Below are positions 576-49,922 of a DNA stretch of 64,000 bases, one piece after another. Numbering within the stretch: position 1 is the stretch's first letter; every line of letters starts with the position of its first letter. The translations under genes were made by a program, and so were the position numbers. A model generated the notes under the pieces. The model was not told where the DNA came from. It worked only from the letters and a program-made list of their open reading frames with translations, and made no database searches. The stretch is from Anadara kagoshimensis (lineage: Eukaryota > Mollusca > Bivalvia > Arcoida > Arcidae): positions 53,489,261 through 53,553,260 of the forward strand of contig CM037871.1 in NCBI GenBank assembly GCA_021292105.1. Reading direction: 5' to 3'.

Positions 576-646
576 GAAAAGTTATGTTCAGTTGTTGATG
601 CTGATGAATGTAGTAGTACTATTACACTTGCATTATTTATTTTCAG

Positions 647-3600
647 ACCAAAGAAAACTTTAAACAGCAAGAAGTATGGAGTGGATATGATATGTTATAC
701 TCATGCAGTTAACACTGCACTTCACAGTTCAACAAAAGTTGATGGTATGTGTTTCCTTTATATATTAGGTCACTACATGAGCAAGCATATGTGACAAATG
801 CACAAAATCAAGCAACCACATCACTGAATCAGTGGTAGAGCATCTACCTCAAACCAACAGGTTGTGGGTTCAAACACTGTCTAGGTCATATAAAAGACTT
901 TTAAATTTGCAATACTGTTTCCTTGTCTGGCACTTGGTTTCAAGAGGACAGAGTATCAACTGGTTCACTTGATGTTGTTATGAATGTAACTGGAGGAGTG
1001 GTATTATTGTCTACATACAGCATACTGATTCCATGAGCTAGCACCTCAAAATTACCACGAATGTGCCAATATAAGACACTTGTACATCATATGCATACAA
1101 AGACTTGTTCTTGGATTAATCAGTAGAGATTAATAAACTTGTTCTTGTCGGGAATTATGGATGGACATGGCTGAGTGGTACTGTCGCTGGCTTTTGAAGT
1201 GGAGGGTTGTGGGTTCCAACCTCACTAGGGACAATGATTTTCATCTCCTGCCCCATACTATAACTGAAAAGGTCGATACTAAAATAGTCTTCCAGACGAG
1301 ACTCAAAACCGAGGTCCTGTGTCTCGGTGCATACTTAAGACACCTCTGTAGAGTTATAAAAGAGTAGGCCACCTGTGGCCGCTACAGAGGACGCTTAAAA
1401 GTACAAGTGATTGAAACAGGCTGAGATAGAGTATGTTTAACTTTGTGTCTATAAGGTATTTCTTAGATGCCTGCATGCTAGTCATATGCAGTTCTTTTGT
1501 TGTTAGCTCACCTGACCGAAGGTCATGTGAGCTTATGGCATAGCGCAGCGTGTGTATGTGCGTGTGTGCGTGTGTGCGTGTGTGCGTCGTTAACACCTAT
1601 TTTCGACTTCTCCTCTGAAACTACTGGACAGTTTTTAATGAAACTTTGTCAGAAGTATATATGGGCCGGTGCAATTCAGATTTGTTCGTGGCGTTGCTAT
1701 GGCTACTATAACTAGGTCAAGGTGACCTAGGGGTGCAAAAATCTTAAAAAATCTTCTTCTCCGAAAGTACTGATTGGAGAAAAAATCTGATGTGATATTT
1801 GGCTTCTCTAGGGTCTTAAGCCTATAGTTTGTTCATTTTGTGAAATTCTGATAAAAAATAGGTTACGCGTTTTTGCGTTTAATTTTGAAAAAATCGTAAA
1901 ATAGCTTCAAATTGTTATAACTTAACTATTTGACCAGATAATGACATGGGGTTTTCAGTTTTGACATCTTCTTGTTAGTATCTTCAAAATGAGGTCAAGG
2001 TCAATTGTGAAGGTCGTGACCTAATTTTTTTTACCTCTGATTATAATTATTATCTCAAAAACTATAAACTTTTTGTATAGGCATGTATATTAGAATGTTG
2101 TAGGTATTGATACAATGATCATTTTGATGTATAGAAAAAGGTCATGGGTTCAAAGGTCAAGGTCACACATGCGAAACAATACCGAAATGGTTAATTATCT
2201 CGAAAACTATAAACATTTTGTATAGGCATGTATATTAGAATGTTGTAGGTATTGATACAACGATCATTTTGATGTATAGAAAAAGGTCATGGGTTCAAAG
2301 GTCAAGGTCACAGATGTGAAACAATACTGAAATGGTTAATTATCTCGAAAACTATAAACTTTTTGTATAGGCATATATATTAGAATGTTGTAGGTATTGA
2401 TACAACGATCATTTTGATGTATAGAAAAAGGTCATGGGTTCAAAGGTCAAGGTCACAGATATGAAACAATACCGAAATGGTTAATTATCTCGAAAACTAT
2501 AAACATTTTGTATAGGCATGTATATTAGAATGTTGTAGGTATTGATACAACGATCATTTTGATGTATAGAAAAAGGTCATGGGTTCAAAGGTCAAGGTCA
2601 CAGATGTGAAACAATACCGAAATGGTTAATTATCTCGAAAACTATAAACTTTTTCTATGGGCATGTATATTAGAATGTTGTAGGTATTGATACAACGATC
2701 ATTTTGATGTATAGAAAAAGGTCATGGGTTCAAAGGTCAAGGTCACAGATGTGAAACAATACCGAAATGGTTAATTATCTCGAAAACTATAAACTTTTTC
2801 TATAGGCATGTATATTAGAATGTTGTAGGTATTGATACAACGATCATTTTGATGTATAAAAAAAAGCTCATGGGTTGAAAGGTCAAGGTCATAGATGTGA
2901 AACAATACCGAAATGGTTAATTATCTTGAAAACTATAAACTTTTTGTATAGGCATGTATATTAGAATGTTGTAGGTATTGATACAACGATTATTTTGATG
3001 TATAGAAAAAGGTCATGGGTTCAAAGGTCAAGGTCACAGATTCGAAACAATACTGAAATGGTTAATTATCTCGAAAACTATAAACTTTTTATATAGACAT
3101 GTATATTAGAATGGTGTAGGTATTGATACAACGATCATTTTAATGTATAGAAAAAGGTCATTGGTTCAAAGGTCAAGGTCACAGATGTGAAATAATACCG
3201 AAATGATTAATTATCTCTAAAACTATAAACTTTTTGTATAGGCATGTATATTAGAATGTTGTAGGTATCAATACAACGATCATTTTGATGTATAGAAAAA
3301 GGTCATGGGTTCAAAGGTCAAGGTCACAGATGTGAAACAATACTGAAATGGTTAATTATCTCGAAAACTATAAACTTTTTGTATAGGCTTATATATTAGA
3401 ATGTTGTAGGTATTGATACATTTTTCGATCATTTTGATGTATAGAAAAAGGTCCTGGGTTCAAAGGTCAAGGTCACAGATGTGAAACAATACTGAAATGG
3501 TTAATTATCTTGAAAACTATTAACTTTTTGTATAGGCATGTATATTAGAATATTGTAGGTATTGATACAATGGTTATCATGATTTAAAGAAAAAGTCATT

Positions 3601-6600
3601 GGGGTTTAGTATTTATGTTTTCTTAAAATCTATCAGCTAGCCATTAGTTATCAGGTGAGCGTATCAGGCCCATGGGCCTCTTGTTTTTTATCACAATCCC
3701 AACTATAAAATACATATCTGGTTATTTGATAAATGATGATAAATTTACATGATAAAATTTTTGTATTTATTGTAACATTTTATATTTCAGATACAATTCG
3801 ATACCTGTCTCTACATGACAACAAATATATCAGATATTTTCCTGGACATACTAAAAAGTAAGTTTTATTTAAATTTTGATACCTCTTAAAATTGAAATAA
3901 ATCTTTATCACATATTTTTGTTTAGTAGAACTTTGCTAGCTGGAATTAAAAAAAAATTAGATAGCCACTGAAACTTATTATTTATTATTTGGCCACCACT
4001 ATCATTATCATCCTTTGAAGTTTAAATTTACTAAAACATCCTGAATGTATGCACATCAAGTTAATGAAACTCCTCTGTATTTGTGTTGTATGTGAAAACA
4101 TAAAGGTCAAGTTTTAAAACGATGCTGTCCTGTGACTTGTTTACACTTCTAGTATGTATAATTGGATTGTGAGTTACCTGGTGTGTTATTGTAGCAAGTT
4201 GTTTTTTACCTGCCCAGGTAGACTGATCAGTTTAAGTCATCAGTCTATCTATGCTAGGAGATTTAGTTCCAGTATTTTGTACAATTACATATTGATTACC
4301 TTGTAATTACATTTCCAGTGACAATACATTGGTGAATAGATGTATGCCACTTTGCAAATACACATTCAACTTGAGAACTATATTTATTTTTCACCCAATA
4401 TTTATGTGAAGGTAGTTAAGGAAAACTATATTCTATAAAACAAATTGGATGGTTTCATCAGCAAATATCAGGAATACGGTACCTTGTAAATCAGCATAAT
4501 ATAGATATTTGGTGCTTATTTTTTCTTTCAGAGTTGTTACTTTGAATATGTCACCAGTCAACGACTCATTTTTATCAGGATCGCTGGATAAAACTATCAG
4601 AATTTGGGACTTGAGGTCACAAAATTGTCAGGTACAGTAGTATTGATTAACATAAAGATTAAGGTAAGGTAGATTTACCATCACCAATATGTCTTGTATG
4701 AGAAGTTCAGTTAAGATTATTTCAAACTTCAAAGAGAAAGTATAAGTATAGGTTTTTCCAAATTTATACATATCTCTCGTACAGATGTTATCACTACCCA
4801 GTTACATACTCCCCTCAGATGCTATAAATGCAGGTTCTAATAGTAAGCCAAAAAGTAGACACTAAAAATGATGACCTTAAAAGTTATTTAGATGTAGCAA
4901 GGTTTACCAAATTTAATGACCAAATAGATATTAAAGCACACTTGGTGAAAAATAATAAATGTGTAGATGTTTTCTTAGTCTCTCTGAACATCTTAAAAGT
5001 AATAACATGCAGTGATGCAGTGCTTCAGATTGTCGGTGCGCCCGCGCCAATCCCGCATTATTTTAAAAAATGGCGCATAACATTTTCTTCTAATGGGTCC
5101 ACGTGGCGCATGGTTTTTCTTAGCCAAATTGATCGTTAATAATTTCTTCCCAAAACTACATATTAGATTCCATGCGGTTTTCCGATTTGACTTTCTGTTT
5201 TCGTTTTCTATCGGAAAATCTCTAGCATCTTTGTTTATCTCATAATCAGCATGTAGACAGGACTCCCGACAAGCCCCTTCTCTTTGCTCTATGCGTCGGT
5301 TATTAACATTAATATTCAAAGGGGGAGAACTCGTAATAAAACTTTTTATGACCTCGGACGTTGTCGTTCATTTAATATGCTAGCGGCAACCATGGCTATG
5401 AGATGCAGACGACTCTATTCACATTTTTTAAAACAACACAAAGCGCAGAGAAGTAGATACATAAAATGAATCATGGAGTTGAAAGAGTTTAAAATATATC
5501 GTAAAGGTTAACAAAGTATAAATTAGCAGATGACAAGATCGCTTTTGGTGCATTATATGAAGATGTCAAGTGCCGACTTTCACTTTCAGTCACGTGGTCG
5601 TGGCATAACATTTAATTATGTGGCAAAACATGACCCACTATAACAAGAAATGACCCCTTGTTATTGGACCTGGTGGGCCCTTGTGGCCCACTATCTGTAA
5701 AAACAATCTGAAGCACTGGTGATGTTATGATACATGCATGGTTCATAAGACCTTTGGCTTTGTCTAAATTGGCCATAAACTTGTCATTTAAGGTTCCTTT
5801 GGTGTAAAAAGGGCAGAATAAATTTTATCCTACACTGTTCATTTTCATAAGCCTGTTGCATAGTGTAATTTCCAATAATATCACTTGTAGCTGCCGACGC
5901 CTATATAAGTGAAATAAAACTGCATTGGGGGACAAAAATTTTTGTTAAAATTCTTGCTTGATCAACTTAGATTTTGTTTTATTTTCAATTTCAGGGTTTA
6001 ATGCATTTACCAGGCAGGCCTGTAGCAGCATTTGATCCTGAAGGTTTAATATTTGCTGCTGGTATAAATTCAGAATGTGTTAAGCTTTATGATCTCCGGT
6101 CCTTTGACAGGGTAAGAAGCTTTGTCATGTTTATTTTACAAGTTGAATGAAGTTTTTCCTTTCATATTTATGTACTTTGTTTTGCATGTTGATACAAACT
6201 TTACAAAGGATTGCACACAGTTACATGAAGCAAATGCTGCATTATATATTGTATCAGATGGACTCCTGATGTTATTATTTACAGTTATAAGGTTACAAAT
6301 GTATAAGGACAGTACATGATTATGTCTGACCAATCAAAAAACATAATTACACAAGATGATGATAAGATATTACGGTAAATTTAACTGAATGTATATAAAT
6401 AAAAACATTCCAGGTAAATTGTGCAGACCTTTTGGTAAATTTTCGAGTAGAAGACAAATTTCTTAAAGTAAACAGCAAGTATTGCAAAACATAAACTAAA
6501 TAGAAGTAAGCAATGAACTTCAAATCCAAACAAGTAACAGACAACTGTTGTCACCTTGCTGACTTTTTTGAAACAGTGCACCGATTGTGTATCTAATTTT

Positions 6601-25325: not shown

Positions 25326-26260
25326 TAGTCTCCTACCGGCGAAAGCCAAAGGGGACTTTAGGTTTGCGCTCTGTCCGTCTGTCACGCCTCAGTTTTCCAC
25401 ACTTATTTTCTAAAATCTTTTAGATAATGAACTGATTTTTGGTATGTGAGTCTACCATAATGAGTTGCAGATCAAGTTAGCGTTTCATTCTGGTCCGCAA
25501 ATTTTTACATGAGTTATGGCCCTTTGAACTTTGAAAATTCATTGAAATTTCAGTTTTCCGCTCTTTTTTTTCTAAATGCTTTTAGATAATGAACTGATTT
25601 TTGGTATATGAGTCTACCATGATGAGTTATAGATCAAGTTTACGTTTCGTTTCCATCTGCTAATTTTTACCGGAGTTATGGCCCTTTGATCTTTAAAAAT
25701 TCACAGAAATTTTAGTTTTCCGCACTTTTTTTTCTACACGCTTGCAGAAATGGAACTAATGTTTGGTATGTGACTCTACTATTATGATTTACAGATCAAA
25801 TTTATGTTTCGTTTCCATCTGCTAATTTTTACGGGAGTTATAGCCCTTTGAACTTTGAAAATTCACTGAAATTTCAGTTTTCCGCTCTTTTTTTCTACAC
25901 GCTAGCAGTTAATGAATTTTTTTGGTATGCAGGTCAACCATGATGAGTTACAGATCAAGTTTACGTTTCGTTTCATTCCACTAGTTTTTATGAGAGTTAT
26001 GGGCCTTTGAACTTTGAAAATTCAATGAAATTTCAGTTCTTTTTTTCTACATGCTTGCAGATAATGAATTTTTGAGAACTCCATTGTTGGTTTTTGATTT
26101 TACTATGATCAAGTTTTGCTTTACATCTTGAACAGCAGGTATAATTTATAACTATAAATCTTTGTACCATATAATAGGGTACATTTTACCTAAAACTTTG
26201 GGATTAGTGAAATATGCGACCGGTAGGGGACTATGTATTGTTTTGCAATACTCTCAGAAT
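25326..26260 (+). mobile_element. Tandem-repeat element R4, copy A (upstream of the HPGD-like gene)
   Basis: The ends are TAGTCTCCTACCGGCGAAAG and GCGACCGGTAGGGGACTA, an imperfect TIR of about 17 bp with TA at both edges. Similarity to copy B runs a further 27 bp past the right end ('ttgcaatactctca'). Inside are about five units of about 160 bp, beginning near 25391, 25551, 25711, 25873 and 26032, each with 'gagttatggccctttgaac'. It ends about 400 bp before the HPGD-like ATG. Confidence 0.8.
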
Positions 26261-28271: not shown

Positions 28272-31235
28272 GATATTTTAACACTGTAAAGTAGGGATAA
28301 GTGAGATTAATAGTGAGGACAATGTGAGATTCATATAAGAATACGTTAGTTTTTTTACCTACAATGTAGAGACATTTTCAGTATTTAAATGCGAGGACAT
28401 TTTTGTAGGGACAATCGAATGTCTTCCGCCTAACCTAACCCTACCCTATTGTAAATAGTGTTTTAGAGCATTTCAGATCTGGGGACACAATGCAAGATGT
28501 ATCCCACATGGTTGGTGGTGTCCCCACTATATGCTTGTGATGGAATCTTTTATTAACAGCTGGGGCATCCACCTTGGTGTGCATATTTGATTATTTATTA
28601 ATACATGTAACTATTTACTGTATTTCCACAAATTTAGTGCACATGGTAAATATAAGACTAAAGTCGTACTTAAAAAAGAAACTCACAAAAATGTGAAAAC
28701 TCGATACAAAACTAAATATACTGACCTATTAGGAAAAAATATTTTCCACTCATCCAAAAGTGAATTTAATTCTGTACATAGAGCAATTGTAGAAGTTTTT
28801 ATCAAAACAACAAATATAACTATGTCAAATTATCCCTGCTGTCACGTACTGATTTTGAATTTTTATTAAAATAATGCATTTAAAATCAGCACATGACACT
28901 TTTGTACCTTCTTACTTGGAACAACTATAAATGTTATGTCATAATTGGAATATTCATGATGATCACACCTGGAAAATCCTGAACAACAATGAATTACCTG
29001 ACCCTAAAAACCCTGATGTACATTTGAATGAGGCCCAATTGGTGTAAAAACTTGATCAAATTTCAAAATTTTCCCCATAATTTCTCTATGTATAAGATAA
29101 CTGACTAACAATGTTTTCATTTAAAAGTATAATTTGGTTAGTTCAGTGCATTTTAAATGCATTTTATTGAGAGTTTAATGCAAACATTTTCAATTAAAAG
29201 AAATAAATAAGAACAAGAATTTTGAGAGTATTGCAAAACAATACATAGTCCCCTACCAGTCGCATATTTCACTAATCCCAAAGTTTTAGGTAAAATGTAC
29301 CTTATTATATAGTACAAAGATTTATAGTTATAATTTATACGTGTTGTTCAAGATGTAAAGCAAAACTTGATCATAGTAAAATCAAAAACCAGCAATGGAG
29401 TTCTCAAAAATTCATTATCTGCAAGCATGTAGAAAAAAGCGCAAAAAACTGAAATTTCATTGAATTTTCAAAGTTCAAAGGGCCATAACTCCCATAAAAA
29501 CTAGTGGAATGAAACGAAACGTAAACTTGATCTGTAACTCATTATGGTTGACCTGCATACCAAAAAACAATTCATTAACTGCAAGCATGTAGAAAAAAAG
29601 AGCGGAAAACTGAAATTTCAGTGAATTTTCAAAGTTCAAAGGGCCATAACTCCCGTAAAAATTAGCAGATGGAAACGAACCATAAACTTGATCTGTAACT
29701 CATCATGGTAGAGTCACATACCAAACATTAGTTCTATTTCTGCAAGCGTGTAGAAAAAAAGTGCGGAAAACTAAAATTTATGTGAATTTTCAAAGATCAA
29801 AGGGCCATAACTCCTGTAAAAATTAGCAGATGGAAACGAAACGTAAACTTGATCTGTAACTCATCATGGTAGACTCATATACCAAAAATCAGTTCATTAT
29901 CTAAAAGCATTTAGGAAAAAAAGAGCGGAAAACTGAAATTTCAGTGAATTTTCAAAATTCAAAGGGCCATAACTCATGTAAAAATTTGCGAACCAGAATG
30001 AAACGCTAACTTGATCTGCAACTCATCATGGTAGACTCACATACCAAAAATCAGTTCATTATCTAAATTTTAGAAAATAAGTGTGGAAAACTGAGGCGTG
30101 ACAGACGGACGGACAGACGGACAGAGCGCAAACCTAAAGTCCCCTTCGGCTTTCGCCGGCAGGGGACTAAAAAACGTGTGCCTTCCATTTATGGAAATAC
30201 AGTAGTTAATTTTAAGAATTGGTACGGGTCTTCTTATGTTTACTTACAGAATGGACTTATTCACGGAACAAATACGGCGCTTGATTACATGCGGAAAGAT
30301 AAAGGTGGTAATGGTGGAGTAATAGTAAATGTGGCGTCTTTGTATGGTAAAATTTTGACAGCATATTTCACCATGGCTATTTTTCCTTTATGTCAAAACA
30401 ATAACATTTTTGAGTTTTTAATTTGCCAGAATTGATATTGGTAGCCGGAAGACTTATTGCTATAAAAGGCAGTAACATAATTGAGTTTTGAATTAATATT
30501 AATAGTCGGAAGACTTGATATTAAAGGGTTAAATATTTTAACGTTTAATATTACTTAAAAAATTATTTGTCTCTTTCTGAAGTTGTAACTATCTATGATT
30601 TTTGTTTATTACGAATTTATCTGTAATTTTAAAATAGGAGTCTTTTTAATTGTTTCAGGCATTATACCAACAGTTTTTGCAGCAGTGTACAGCGCAACAA
30701 AATCCGGAGTAATAGGGTATACCAGAAGTTGGGCAGTAAGTGTACACATCTATACTTTGTTAAAATCATTGACAACGTGGTGACGAATTTGTTTACGCCC
30801 AATGATGTTCGTTCTCGTTCTGTTTGCAGTAGGCCGTAACCGGTAATCCGAAGTAATGGTTTATCTTTGATATAGTGTAAGCAGTGTGCTAGTATAGAAG
30901 ACATCTAGCCAGTTCAAACCGAATATTTTAATTTTGGAAACTAGCAACCTGCTGCTCATTTAAATAAACTGTGTGCATCAACCTAACTGGCAATCAAATT
31001 CCATAACGTTTCTGTGCGGCGTGCTTTATTGAAAACGTAAACGCCGCAAATTCCCGTTGTTTTATAGGGAAACCTCAACATAATTTTACAAAAAAAAAAA
31101 AAAAAAACCGCACGGAACATTTACATTTTAACTTGAAAACGCCAACAGAAGCATTCCGTATAAATACACCTATATCTAATAATAATACTATAATAGCAGA
31201 CATTATGTGAGTTCACATGGAACGCCGGTGAAACG

Positions 31236-33276: not shown

Positions 33277-34535
33277 TTAGCTCACCTTAGCCAAAAGGCT
33301 CAGTTGACCTATTGCAATCTATTACCGTCCGTCGTGCGTCGTGAGTCGTCCGTCGTGTGTAAACTTTACATTTTAATCTTCTCCTCCAAAACTACTGAGC
33401 CAAATTTGATGAAACTTGATGATTATCATGCCTGGGTAACAGGCTTTAAAAATTGTGTTCGGGGTTTGACCACGCCCAACAATATGGCTGCCGTTACTAT
33501 AAATAGCCAAAAGACAAAAATTTTTCTCTGAAACCAAAAGGTGCAGACAAATTTTGATTAGATATTTGGATTTAGGATGCATAAGAACATTAAAATTGTG
33601 TTTTTTATGAAAATTGGATGAAAAATAGATTACGCGTTTTTTTGCGTAAAATTACGTAATTTTTAAAATGAGACATATATTATTATGACTTTATAACGGC
33701 TGAAGATAATTGTATAGAGTTTTCACTGTTGATCTTGTCTTGCGATTTTCTTCCAATTGATGTCAAAGTCAAAGGTCAAGGTCATGTCCCAGTTTTTGAT
33801 CTTTGATAAAAATGCTATTTTTAAACATTTCTGGTGATAATGGCATAGGATTTTCAGTTAATTGTAGGTATTGACATGGCCAACATTTTGATACATAGAT
33901 CAAGGTCATGGGTTCAAAGGTTAAGGTCACAGATGTACAAATATACCAAAATAGTTAATTATCTGCAAAACTATGAACTTTTTGTATGGGCATGTATAAT
34001 AGAATATTGTAGGTAATGGCACAATGGTCATTTTGATATATGAATAAAGGTCACGGGCTTAAACGTCAAGGTCACATATGCAAATAAAACTTAGATGGTT
34101 AATTATCTTGAAAACTATTAACTTTTTGTATATGCATGTATATAAGAATATTGTAGGTATAAATCTAACGACTATTTTGATATATGAATGAAGGTTATGG
34201 GTTAAAAGGTCAAGGTCACAGATGCAAATGAATACTGAATTAGTTAATTATCTTCAAAATTAATAATTTTTTGTATAGGCATGTATATAAAAATATTGTA
34301 TGTAATGGCACAGTGGTCATTTTGATATATGAATGAACAGCATGGGTTCAACGGTCAAGGCCACAGATACAAACAAGTACTGAAATGAATATTTATCTTT
34401 AAAACTATAAACTTTTTGTATAGGCATGATGTATATTAGAATATTAGCCTATTTATCATTTTAAAATATGAATAAAGCTCATGGATTCAAAGGTTAAGGT
34501 CACAGGTGAGCGTTAAGGCCCATGGGCCTCTTGTT
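33277..34535 (+). mobile_element. HINE/pearl-like tandem-repeat element, copy 3 (diverged)
   Basis: The left end is 'ttagctcacc' after a T tract. The right end is 'aggtgagcg', then 'aaggcccatgggcct' and 'cttgtt'. The interior keeps the 145-bp period: AAAGGTCAAGGTCA or variants at 33771, 33916, 34061, 34205, 34349 and 34489. More diverged than copies 1 and 2, and it lacks the palindromic ERE. Confidence 0.8.
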
Positions 34536-42133: not shown

Positions 42134-44170
42134 TTAGCTCACCTGACCGAAGGTCATGTGAGCTTATGGCATAGCGCAGCGTGTGTATGTGCGTGTGTGC
42201 GTGTGTGCGTGTGTGCGTCGTTAACACCTATTTTCGACTTCTCCTCTGAAACTACTGGACAGTTTTTAATGAAACTTTGTCAGAAGTATATATGGGCCGG
42301 TGCAATTCAGATTGTTCGTGGCGTTGCTATGGCTACTATAACTAGGTCAAGGTGACCTAGGGGTGCAAAAATCTTAAAAAAATCTTCTTCTCCGAAAGTA
42401 CTGATTGGAGAAAAAATCTGATGTGATATTTGGCTTCTCTAGGGTCTTAAGCCTACAGTTTGTTCATTTTGTGAAATTCTGATAAAAAATAGGTTACGCG
42501 TTTTTGCGTTTAATTTTGAAAAAAATCGTAAAATAGCTTCAAATTGTTATAACTTAACTATTTGACAAGATAATGACATGGGGTTTTCAGTTTTGACATC
42601 TTCTTGTTAGTATCTTCAAAATGAGGTCAAGGTCAATTATGAAGGTCGTGACCTAATTTTTTTTACCTCTGATTATAATTATTATCTCAAAAACTATAAA
42701 CTTTTTGTATAGGCATGTATATTAGAATGTTGTAAGTATTGATACAACGATCATTTTGATGTATAAAAAAGGTCATGGGTTCAAAGGTCAAGGTCACACA
42801 TGCGAAACAATACCGAAATGGTTAATTATCTCGAAAACTATAAACATTTTGTATAGGCATGTATATTAGAATGTTGTAGGTATTGATACAACGATCATTT
42901 TGATGTATAGAAAAAGGTCATGGGTTCAAAGGTCAATGTCACAGGTGTGAAACAATACTGAAATGGTTAATTATTTTGAAAACTATAAACTTTTTGTATA
43001 GGCATATATATTAGAATGTTGTAGGTATTGATACAACAGTCATTTTGATGTATAGAAAAAGGTCATGGGTTTAAAGGTCAAGGTCACAGATATAAAAAAA
43101 TACAGAAATGGTTAATTATCTCGAAATCTATAAACTTTTTGTATAGGCATATATATTAGAATGTTGTAGGTATTGATACAACGGTCATTTTGATGTATAG
43201 AAAAAGGTCATGGGTTTAAAGGTCAAGGTCACAGATGTGAAACAATACCGAAATGGTTAATTATCTCGAAAACTATAAACATTTTGTATAGGCATGTATA
43301 TTAGAATGTTGTAGGTATTGATACAACGATCATTTTGATGTATAGAAAAAGGTCATGGGTTCAAAGGTCAAGGTCACAGATGTGAAACAATACCGAAATG
43401 GTTAATTATCTCGAAAACTATAAACTTTTTCTATAGGCATATATATTAGAATGTTGTAGGTATTGATACAACGATCATTTTGATGTATAGAAAAAGGTCA
43501 TGGGTTCAAAGGTCAAGGTCACAGATGTGAAACAATACTGAAATGGTTAATTATCTCGAAAACTATAAACTTTTTATATAGACATGTATATTTGAATGGT
43601 GTAGGTATTGATACAACGATCATTTTAATGTATAGAAAAAGGTCATTGGTTCAAAGGTCAAGGTCACAGATGTGAAATAATACCGAAATGATTAATTATC
43701 TCTAAAACTATAAACTTTTTGTATAGGCATGTATATTAGAATGTTGTAGGTATCAATACAACGATCATTTTGATGTATAGAAAAAGGTCATGGGTTCAAA
43801 GGTCAAGGTCACAGATGTGAAACAATACTGAAATGGTTAATTATCTCGAAAACTATAAACTTTTTGTATAGGCTTATATATTAGAATGTTGTAGGTATTG
43901 ATACATTTTTCGATCATTTTGATGTATAGAAAAAGGTCATGGGTTCAAAGGTCAAGGTCACAGATGTGAAACAATACTGAAATGGTTAATTATCTTGAAA
44001 ACTATTAACTTTTTGTATAGGCATGTATATTAGAATATTGTAGGTATTGATACAATGGTTATCATGATTTAAAGAAAAAGTCATTGGGGTTTAGTATTTA
44101 TGTTTTCTTAAAATCTATCAGCTAGCCATTAGTTATCAGGTGAGCGTATCAGGCCCATGGGCCTCTTGTT
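42134..44170 (+). mobile_element. HINE/pearl-like tandem-repeat element, copy 2
   Basis: Same ends and order as copy 1 and almost the same sequence, including a shared 4-bp insertion in the last unit ('acatttttcgatc'). DR0 cores lie at 42782, 42928 (variant), 43072, 43217, 43362, 43507, 43652, 43797 and 43946, one unit fewer than copy 1, which accounts for the length difference of about 146 bp. Confidence 0.85.
42342..42360. promoter_or_regulatory. Perfect palindromic estrogen-response-element sequence in copy 2
   Basis: Identical CTAGGTCAAGGTGACCTAG to that at 1712-1730 in copy 1. Confidence 0.5.
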
Positions 44171-48852: not shown

Positions 48853-49922
48853 AACAAGAGGCCCAAGGGTATAAACGCTCACTTGAGGGTATGTACATAT
48901 CTCATTCAATGCTTAATGGTCAATTTAGAAAGTTAAACGAGTATGTCCAAATTTTAAGCAGTTGGGGCCCATATGTCAGAATTGTTCGTAGAATTTACAA
49001 TTTTTGTTTCACAATTTCATAATATATTTTGGTGCTTTGGTTTTTTCAACATCTTGGGAAAAAGTTTTGGTTTCATAATTTAGGTCCAAGCACTACTAAT
49101 GAGCAATTGTATTCCGAACCGTCCCTCTAGTGCTGTAAAATTAAAACTGGTATAATATGTAATTCAAACCCTTGAGCTGGTATCTCTGCCGGTGGCTGGT
49201 ACCCCAAGGATATCAGAAATAAGTAGGTAATAATTGTGTATTGTCAAAAATGTACTATTGTCTAAATTTGCAGCTTTGTGAAATTTGAAATTCCTCAACA
49301 ACTAAGGTATACTACCTCATTCAAAGTATTTTCTTATCTAAATTTGATAAAATATATTTCGGTTCTTTGGGTATTTTTTCATCTTGTGGAATTGTATTCC
49401 GAAACGACTGTTTAGTGCTGTAAAATAAAATCCGGTATAATATGAAATTACAACTTCCTAAGAATGCTACAACTTCAACATTTAATATCTGGCTGCAGTA
49501 TATTTATAAGCAGCTAAAATAGTAAAAACAAAAGTAAATCCTAAAAAACTAGGTCATTTTAGCATTTATTTGCATTCGTGACCTTGCTCTTAAAAACGAT
49601 GACATTTTTTCACTAAATCAAAATGACCTTTATGTCAATACTTACAATATTCTTATACATGCCTACACAAAAAGTTTATAGTTTTTGAGTTAAATAACCA
49701 TTCCAGTATTCGTTTGCATCTGTGACCTTGACCTTTGCACCCATGATGTCATTCATATATCAAAATGACCATTTCACCAATTCCAACAATATTCTAATAT
49801 ACATTCCTATACAAAGGCTCATAGATTTTAAGATAATTTGAGTTGATTAAAATAAAAAAGTTTATAAACGACGGACGAAAGAAGATGACAATAGCTTACC
49901 TGAGCCTTTGGCTTGTGTTCTT
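48853..49922 (-). mobile_element. HINE/pearl-like tandem-repeat element, copy 4 (inverted, diverged)
   Basis: The left edge 'aacaagaggcccaagggt' and 'cgctcacttga' is the complement of the family's 3' end. The right edge 'ttacctgagcctttggcttg' complements the 5' end of copy 3. TGACCTTGACCTTTG at 49724 and the variant 'gtgaccttgctctt' at 49578 keep the 145-bp spacing. Confidence 0.7.

What the first reader, a model, noticed from the sequence alone, without database searches (positions are those of the whole stretch)
1503..3685. Mobile element carrying a regular array of nuclear-receptor type sites inside a WDR82 intron
Seen: ten units of 145 bp, nearly all containing AAAGGTCAAGGTCA, a DR0 of AGGTCA. 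It also contains TCAAGGTCA (the ERR/NR5A type) and AAAGGTCA (the NBRE type). Known: GCNF/NR6A binds DR0, NR5A and ERR bind TCAAGGTCA, NR4A binds AAAGGTCA, and molluscs have these receptor families. Inference: the element can scatter dense receptor-binding platforms through the genome, or exploits a receptor for its own activity.
Basis: partly seen in the sequence, partly recalled or inferred. Interest (0 to 1): 0.72.

Follow-up and report, generated by a model that had tools for sequence, protein, structure and literature searches.

The report
Jumping-gene array of hormone-receptor-like sites
A very common non-coding jumping element in this animal genome carries, in each full repeat unit of the copy examined, a DNA motif of the kind that hormone-type (nuclear) receptors bind; the motif is among the best-preserved parts of the repeat and the same array sits upstream of a transposase gene in related elements, but receptor binding has not been shown.

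Summary
Confirmed: 1504-3685 is a mobile element with 10.7 units of 145 bp; all 10 complete units carry AAAGGTCAAGGTCA. The genome has 89,999 exact copies, against 28 of the reversed word, and 9,034 exact copies of the element's 3' 20-mer. The element is a HINE, a non-autonomous Helentron of the Pearl/DINE-1/Cg_HINE kind. The array is not private to it: it also stands 5' of a Helitron_like_N (Rep-region) gene in a presumably autonomous, recently active Helentron whose 3' end matches; 22 of 22 near-full-length array-junction copies have that domain 5.8-10.0 kb downstream. DR0 is the most often intact 14-mer of the unit (90 of 117 units in 18 elements not chosen by the motif, rank 1 of 132), but a second block, TTTTGTATAGGCAT, is about equally conserved. 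AGGTCA is also enriched in the non-repeated leader: 6 against 0.17 expected, 0 of 2000 shuffles. Receptors: NR5A is present here, NR6A not evident, ERR not answered. Best reading: the AGGTCA cluster is constrained because a host nuclear receptor binds it and helps express the Helentron. Binding is untested. Known kind of element; the receptor-type array is a new variant.

The parts
1504..3685 (+). HINE copy A (non-autonomous Helentron) in an intron of a WD40 (WDR82-like) gene
   Evidence: ends and architecture read; copy C 42135-44170 about 96% identical; 3' end shared with a Rep-encoding Helentron
1505..1533 (+). 5' subterminal inverted repeat and its complementary repeat (hairpin AGCTCACCTGACC/GGTCATGTGAGCT)
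   Evidence: inverted repeat I21
1548..1587 (+). microsatellite of the left module
1714..1728 (+). AGGTCAAGGTGACCT, inverted repeat of AGGTCA with 3-base spacer (oestrogen-response-element type; the label is recalled)
   Evidence: intact in 8 of 8 type-I and I' leaders that reach it
1992..2022 (+). leader DR0 (1992-2003) and imperfect Pal0 AGGTCGTGACCT (2011-2022)
   Evidence: the DR0 12-mer is in 8 of 10 type-I/I' leaders that reach it
2049..3599 (+). central array, 145-bp unit x 10.7, one AAAGGTCAAGGTCA in each of 10 complete units
3651..3685 (+). 3' subTIR TCAGGTGAGC, palindrome GGCCCATGGGCC (3667-3678) and end CTCTTGTT
   Evidence: 9,034 exact copies of AGGCCCATGGGCCTCTTGTT
33278..34535 (+). 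copy B, diverged type-II HINE of the same family
42135..44170 (+). copy C, near-identical type-I HINE
49555..49838 (-). copy D, array fragment
642..743 (+). coding exon upstream of the intron (approximate ends)
   Evidence: translation
3787..3858 (+). coding exon downstream of the intron (approximate ends)
   Evidence: translation

Best explanation
The feature is a HINE: a non-autonomous derivative of a Helentron rolling-circle transposon. Shown: its 145-bp array also lies 5' of a Helitron_like_N gene in a presumably autonomous Helentron with a matching 3' end, so the HINEs most likely derive from such elements by internal loss (derivation inferred). Shown: the AGGTCA cluster of the unit is one of its two most conserved parts, and AGGTCA is independently enriched in the leader. 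Inferred: the cluster is kept because a host nuclear receptor that recognises AGGTCA-type sites (NR5A/FTZ-F1, ERR or TR likeliest; probably not NR6A) binds the array and acts as an enhancer or chromatin opener for the transposase gene in cells where transposition pays; HINE copies inherit the sites and scatter them through the genome.
For: Partner: 3' terminus 95% identical over 40 bp in the one copy examined; array junction in 22 near-full-length copies at 92% identity or more, 22 of 22 with a PF14214 match 5.8-10.0 kb downstream on the same strand; two copies read directly are identical over 601 bp of array and just beyond. Constraint: DR0 14-mer intact in 134 of 173 full units of 25 elements, and in 90 of 117 units of 18 elements not chosen by the motif, rank 1 of 132 both times, medians 73 and 27.5; windows over DR0 are first at 10, 12, 14 and 16 bases; base-matched permutation P 0.0006 over the 25 elements, positions taken as independent; the 27-bp block AGGTCATGGGTTCAAAGGTCAAGGTCA has a between-element to within-array ratio 0.17 of the rest (bootstrap 0.04-0.36; 21 elements with 4 or more units). 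Genome-wide exact counts are 89,999 for DR0 against 71,476 and 44,713 for two other 14-mers of the unit. Leader: 6 AGGTCA against 0.17, 0 of 2000 shuffles; a DR0 stands at the same place in 8 of 10 type-I/I' and 9 of 9 type-II leaders, with an extra half-site making DR1+DR0 in 3 of those 9. Receptor side: NR5A orthologue in this genome; oyster TR binds DR0 in vitro.
Against: No binding, expression or chromatin data. TTTTGTATAGGCAT is as conserved: first by element-weighted identity in all three sets, where DR0 ranks 4, 7 and 9, and its between/within ratio is 0.10, below that of the AGGTCA block; so the pattern is not unique to AGGTCA. In the 53 units under 85% identity DR0 ranks 32 of 132. 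For DR0 alone the singleton/shared test is not significant (p 0.22) and 17 of 145 windows have an equal or lower between/within ratio. The array is about 4.6 kb from the ORF, and the 5' end and helicase part of the presumed autonomous element were not read. The six leader sites lie in four clumps, and the leader DR0 may be a decayed array unit. Another Rep family (2529 aa) had no such array in the 8 kb of one copy examined, so Helentrons do not need it in general.
Confidence: 0.45

Rival explanations
1. Neutral passenger: the 145-bp unit is an ordinary HINE satellite; AGGTCA clusters are there by descent, amplified by unit turnover, and no receptor uses them.
For: Satellite-like central repeats are usual in HINEs such as Cg_HINE and Pearl (passages); a second, non-AGGTCA block is equally conserved; subfamily structure and array homogenisation distort conservation measures; DR0 ranks only 32 of 132 in the older units.
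Against: Base-matched permutation P 0.0006, between/within ratio of the 27-bp block with only 2 of 145 windows as low, AGGTCA enrichment in the unique leader, 0 of 2000 shuffles.
Confidence: 0.3
2. Transposition signal: the direct repeats work like iterons or replication enhancers bound by the Helentron Rep or an accessory protein, not by a receptor.
For: The array is on the 5' side of the Rep-encoding element and kept in HINEs; rolling-circle replicons use direct repeats (recalled); the complement of the 5' subTIR, GGTCAGGTGA, resembles AGGTCAAGGTGA.
Against: Other 5' hairpins of the family read GGCTCA rather than GGTCA, so the likeness is not general; a Rep family without the array in the part seen exists.
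Confidence: 0.12
3. A host DNA-binding protein other than a nuclear receptor binds one or both conserved blocks, for instance a satellite- or nucleosome-phasing factor.
For: Two conserved blocks per 145-bp, roughly nucleosome-sized unit.
Against: AGGTCA also recurs in the leader, in a different arrangement (IR3) away from the array.
Confidence: 0.1

Closest known systems
Cg_HINE / Pearl elements of bivalves (non-autonomous Helentrons with satellite-like central repeats; PMC7492417, outline and passages)
   Same: subTIR plus complementary IR, microsatellite, central tandem repeats, 3' subTIR and palindrome, T-rich insertion
   Different: here each complete unit of the copy carries an AGGTCA cluster that is conserved across copies, and the array is traced to a Rep-encoding Helentron; whether Cg_HINE units hold AGGTCA was not checked
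DINE-1/INE-1 HINEs of Drosophila (PMC4067079, passages)
   Same: same structural class and relation to Helentrons; the passages already mention DINE-1-like elements supplying regulator binding sites
   Different: no DR0 array in the passages seen
ISX/ISXR Helitrons of Drosophila miranda (PMC4384637, passages)
   Same: Helitron elements that spread binding sites of a host regulator
   Different: MSL recognition sites, 77 insertions on the neo-X, binding measured; here binding is untested
Alu DR2 retinoic acid response elements (PMC1785376, outline and abstract)
   Same: a transposon multiplied nuclear-receptor direct repeats: 108,582 consensus DR2 in human, 90% in Alu
   Different: dispersed single elements, DR2 arisen largely by CpG deamination, some shown to recruit receptors; here arrayed DR0, binding untested

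Membership tests
HINE (non-autonomous Helentron) | 5' subTIR followed by a complementary inverted repeat | tested here: met
   1505-1517/1521-1533
HINE (non-autonomous Helentron) | 3' subTIR and palindrome near the 3' end | tested here: met
   TCAGGTGAGC and GGCCCATGGGCC at 3651-3678
HINE (non-autonomous Helentron) | microsatellite and central tandem repeats | tested here: met
   1548-1587 and 2049-3599
HINE (non-autonomous Helentron) | insertion at T-rich/TT sites without target duplication | tested here: inconclusive
   3 window copies begin T|TAGCTC and end CTCTTGTT|; no empty site was sought
HINE (non-autonomous Helentron) | a Rep-encoding partner sharing the 3' terminus | tested here: met
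   95% over 40 bp in one copy, with shared array in 22 of 22 junction copies
HINE (non-autonomous Helentron) | partner sharing the 5' terminus and encoding a helicase | not tested
HINE (non-autonomous Helentron) | no transposase encoded by the element | tested here: met
   only two ORFs of 50 aa or more overlap it, 80 and 72 aa, both crossing its left end
Nuclear-receptor response element | consensus half-sites in a receptor-type arrangement | tested here: met
   DR0, DR1-type and IR3 by sequence
Nuclear-receptor response element | bound in vivo and alters transcription | not testable with these tools
   needs CUT&RUN and reporter assays

The most novel reading that the evidence does not exclude
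A rolling-circle transposon has built an amplifiable nuclear-receptor array as its own host-responsive switch, and its roughly 9,000 or more derivatives put some 90,000 DR0 sites into one genome, enough to titrate or rewire a receptor network.
Probability: 0.2. Interest if true: 0.85.

Novelty: new variant of a known kind. Interest (0 to 1): 0.6.

Why it matters
Tandem arrays inside Helentrons are described in several animals, and I saw no stated function for them in those passages. If the array is a receptor-driven switch of the transposase gene, that gives a testable reason why such arrays exist, and it would make this genome a case comparable to Alu/DR2 but with dense, conserved site arrays, some inside genes.

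Tried and rejected
Rejected: a chance motif; GCNF/NR6A as the likely binder. The 2529-aa Rep family as partner: no matching 3' end or array in the 8 kb seen around one copy. A claim that DR0 is the single most constrained feature: the TTTTGTATAGGCAT block equals it, and with 6-, 8- and 20-base windows DR0 is not first. The 161-bp arrays at 25389-26038 and 29411-30064 were viewed as a comparison; no end of this element's kind was found beside them. An oyster paper found by its motif letters held only a primer. Two unit scripts stopped with errors and were redone; only the per-locus hit counts are used. Genome searches for TATAGGCATGTATA, the ERR domain and AGGTCAAGGTGACCT did not complete.
Full report
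What is there. The stretch 1504-3685 begins TTAGCTCACC and ends CTCTTGTT. It has a 5' hairpin, a GT-rich microsatellite, a unique leader, 10.7 units of 145 bp, and a 3' subTIR with a 12-bp palindrome. AAAGGTCAAGGTCA lies in 10 of 10 complete units. Two ORFs of 50 aa or more (80 and 72 aa) overlap it, both crossing its left end. Three further copies are in the window. The flanking exons translate as a WD40 protein; the name WDR82 is recalled.

More than chance. The 14-mer occurs 89,999 times in the 1.115-Gb genome against 28 for its reversal. The 3' 20-mer occurs 9,034 times. I fetched 2 kb at 15 of the 100 places listed there, all on contig C1: 15 of 15 hold 145-bp units. A random 200 kb on two contigs gave 8 exact DR0 in 3 of 20 stretches, 40 per Mb against 81 genome-wide; the sites are clumped.

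What it is. The plan matches the HINE plan of PMC7492417 (outline, passages) and PMC4067079 (passages). The genome has 104 PF14214 (Helitron_like_N, the Rep region) matches, many with long open frames. For one family, represented by C15:13213320 with an open frame of 2611 aa, the 3' flank contains TATCAGGTGAGCGTATCAGGCCCAATGGGTCTCTTGTT, 95% identical over 40 bp to the HINE end. Its 5' side carries at least five units of the same array, some shortened, four of them with AGGTCAAGGTCA; neither the HINE end words nor the trailer profile were found between array and ORF. A second copy on contig C9 is identical over 601 bp at nearly the same distance. A 500-bp query spanning array end and Helentron sequence gave 41 matches, from 40 of 3109 candidates scored, so counts are lower bounds: 22 near full length at 92% or more, 17 of them at 100%, and 19 partial ones without the array part. 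Compared with 52 of the 104 PF14214 rows, all 22 have such a domain downstream on the same strand, 5.8-10.0 kb away; the chance per junction is about 0.0007. So the array belongs to that element. I call it autonomous by inference: its helicase part and 5' end were not read. The ORF's first ATG follows TTTGATATTTCAG, which looks like a splice acceptor; a 5' exon nearer the array is inference.

Is the motif constrained? 197 unit hits were found; 24 with under 120 aligned columns were dropped. Over the 173 full units of 25 elements DR0 is intact in 134, rank 1 of 132 windows, median 73; without 3 elements found by unit words 110 of 142, rank 1; in the 18 elements found by the 3' end or at random 90 of 117, rank 1, median 27.5. 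Bootstrapping those 18, the top window falls in the DR0 block in 2572 of 3000 draws and in the TTTTGTATAGGCAT block in 413. By element-weighted identity DR0 ranks 4, 7 and 9 of 132 in the three sets and the second block is first. In the 120 units at 85% identity or more DR0 ranks 1, in the 53 below it ranks 32. A base-matched permutation on the 25 elements gives P 0.0006. Between-element against within-array differences, for 21 elements with at least 4 units: 27-bp block 0.17 of the rest (0.04-0.36; 2 of 145 windows as low), DR0 alone 0.13 (0.00-0.45; 17 of 145), second block 0.10 (0.00-0.29; 10 of 145); in 15 elements not found by unit words the values are 0.23, 0.16 and 0.15. The singleton/shared test is significant for the 27-bp block (p 0.00056 for all, 0.019 for the 18) but not for DR0 alone (0.22) or the second block, and is open to saturation bias. 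I read this as moderate evidence of lineage-level constraint on two blocks, one of which is the AGGTCA cluster. Genome-wide counts agree: 89,999, 71,476 and 44,713.

The leader gives further support. AGGTCA occurs 6 times, in four clumps, in the 546-bp type-I leader against 0.17 expected (0 of 2000 shuffles), 5 times in type I' (0 of 2000), 3 in type II (1 of 2000); the type-III stretch tested there runs into the array and is not counted. IR3 is intact in 8 of 8 type-I/I' leaders that reach it. The DR0 12-mer at the leader's end is in 8 of 10 type-I/I' and 9 of 9 type-II leaders, extended to DR1+DR0 in 3 of those 9; the three type-III matches hold one AGGTCA each, and one distant, unclassified leader (L018) holds none. 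The leader DR0 could be a decayed array unit.

Who might bind? NR5A/FTZ-F1 is present: three pieces at C3:47655562-47657759 are 96, 72 and 79% identical to human NR5A1, the last with a stop inside the aligned stretch, perhaps an intron. For NR6A1 the best of 55 matches is 55% identical, and PMC4070562 (passages) reports NR6 missing in oyster, which has ERR and NR5 members. PMC4692385 (passages) shows oyster TR shifting a DR0 probe whose core AAGGTCAAGGTCAC is also in this unit; TR bound DR0-DR5, DR0 fourth of six in strength, so it is not DR0-specific. The ERR search did not complete.

How novel? Transposons that spread receptor sites are known (Alu/DR2, abstract of PMC1785376), as are Helitrons that spread a regulator's sites (ISX, passages of PMC4384637). 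Searches listed no title on nuclear-receptor arrays in Helentrons or HINEs; the lists showed 20 of 81, 20 of 152, 20 of 677, 30 of 36, 10 of 10 and 10 of 75 papers, and only open-licence papers are held.

Verdict. Receptor function remains inference.

Noticed in passing
25389-26038 and 29411-30064: Two arrays of a different 161-162-bp unit, inverted to each other, in flanks with AGTCCCCTACCGG-like stretches; another repeat-bearing element family.
   Followed up: partly
33278-34535; L015, L024: In some copies the array runs almost straight into the 3' end (for example AAGGTCACAGGTGAGC at 34496-34511): the unit's CACAG and the subTIR's CAG overlap, suggesting an internal deletion join.
   Followed up: no
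leaders of L001-L004, L036, L037, L040, L041, L047 and others: Leaders are mosaics: at least four leader types stand before the same 145-bp array, as if modules were swapped.
   Followed up: partly
G000 C1:30605426 and other places with 2529-aa open frames: A second PF14214 family with equal scores on many contigs, apparently recently active, without this array in the 8 kb seen around one copy.
   Followed up: partly
L054:1230-4001: The N-terminal part of the ORF matches Pfam Herpes_teg_N (E 9.8e-08), perhaps the cysteine-protease domain mentioned for Helentrons.
   Followed up: no
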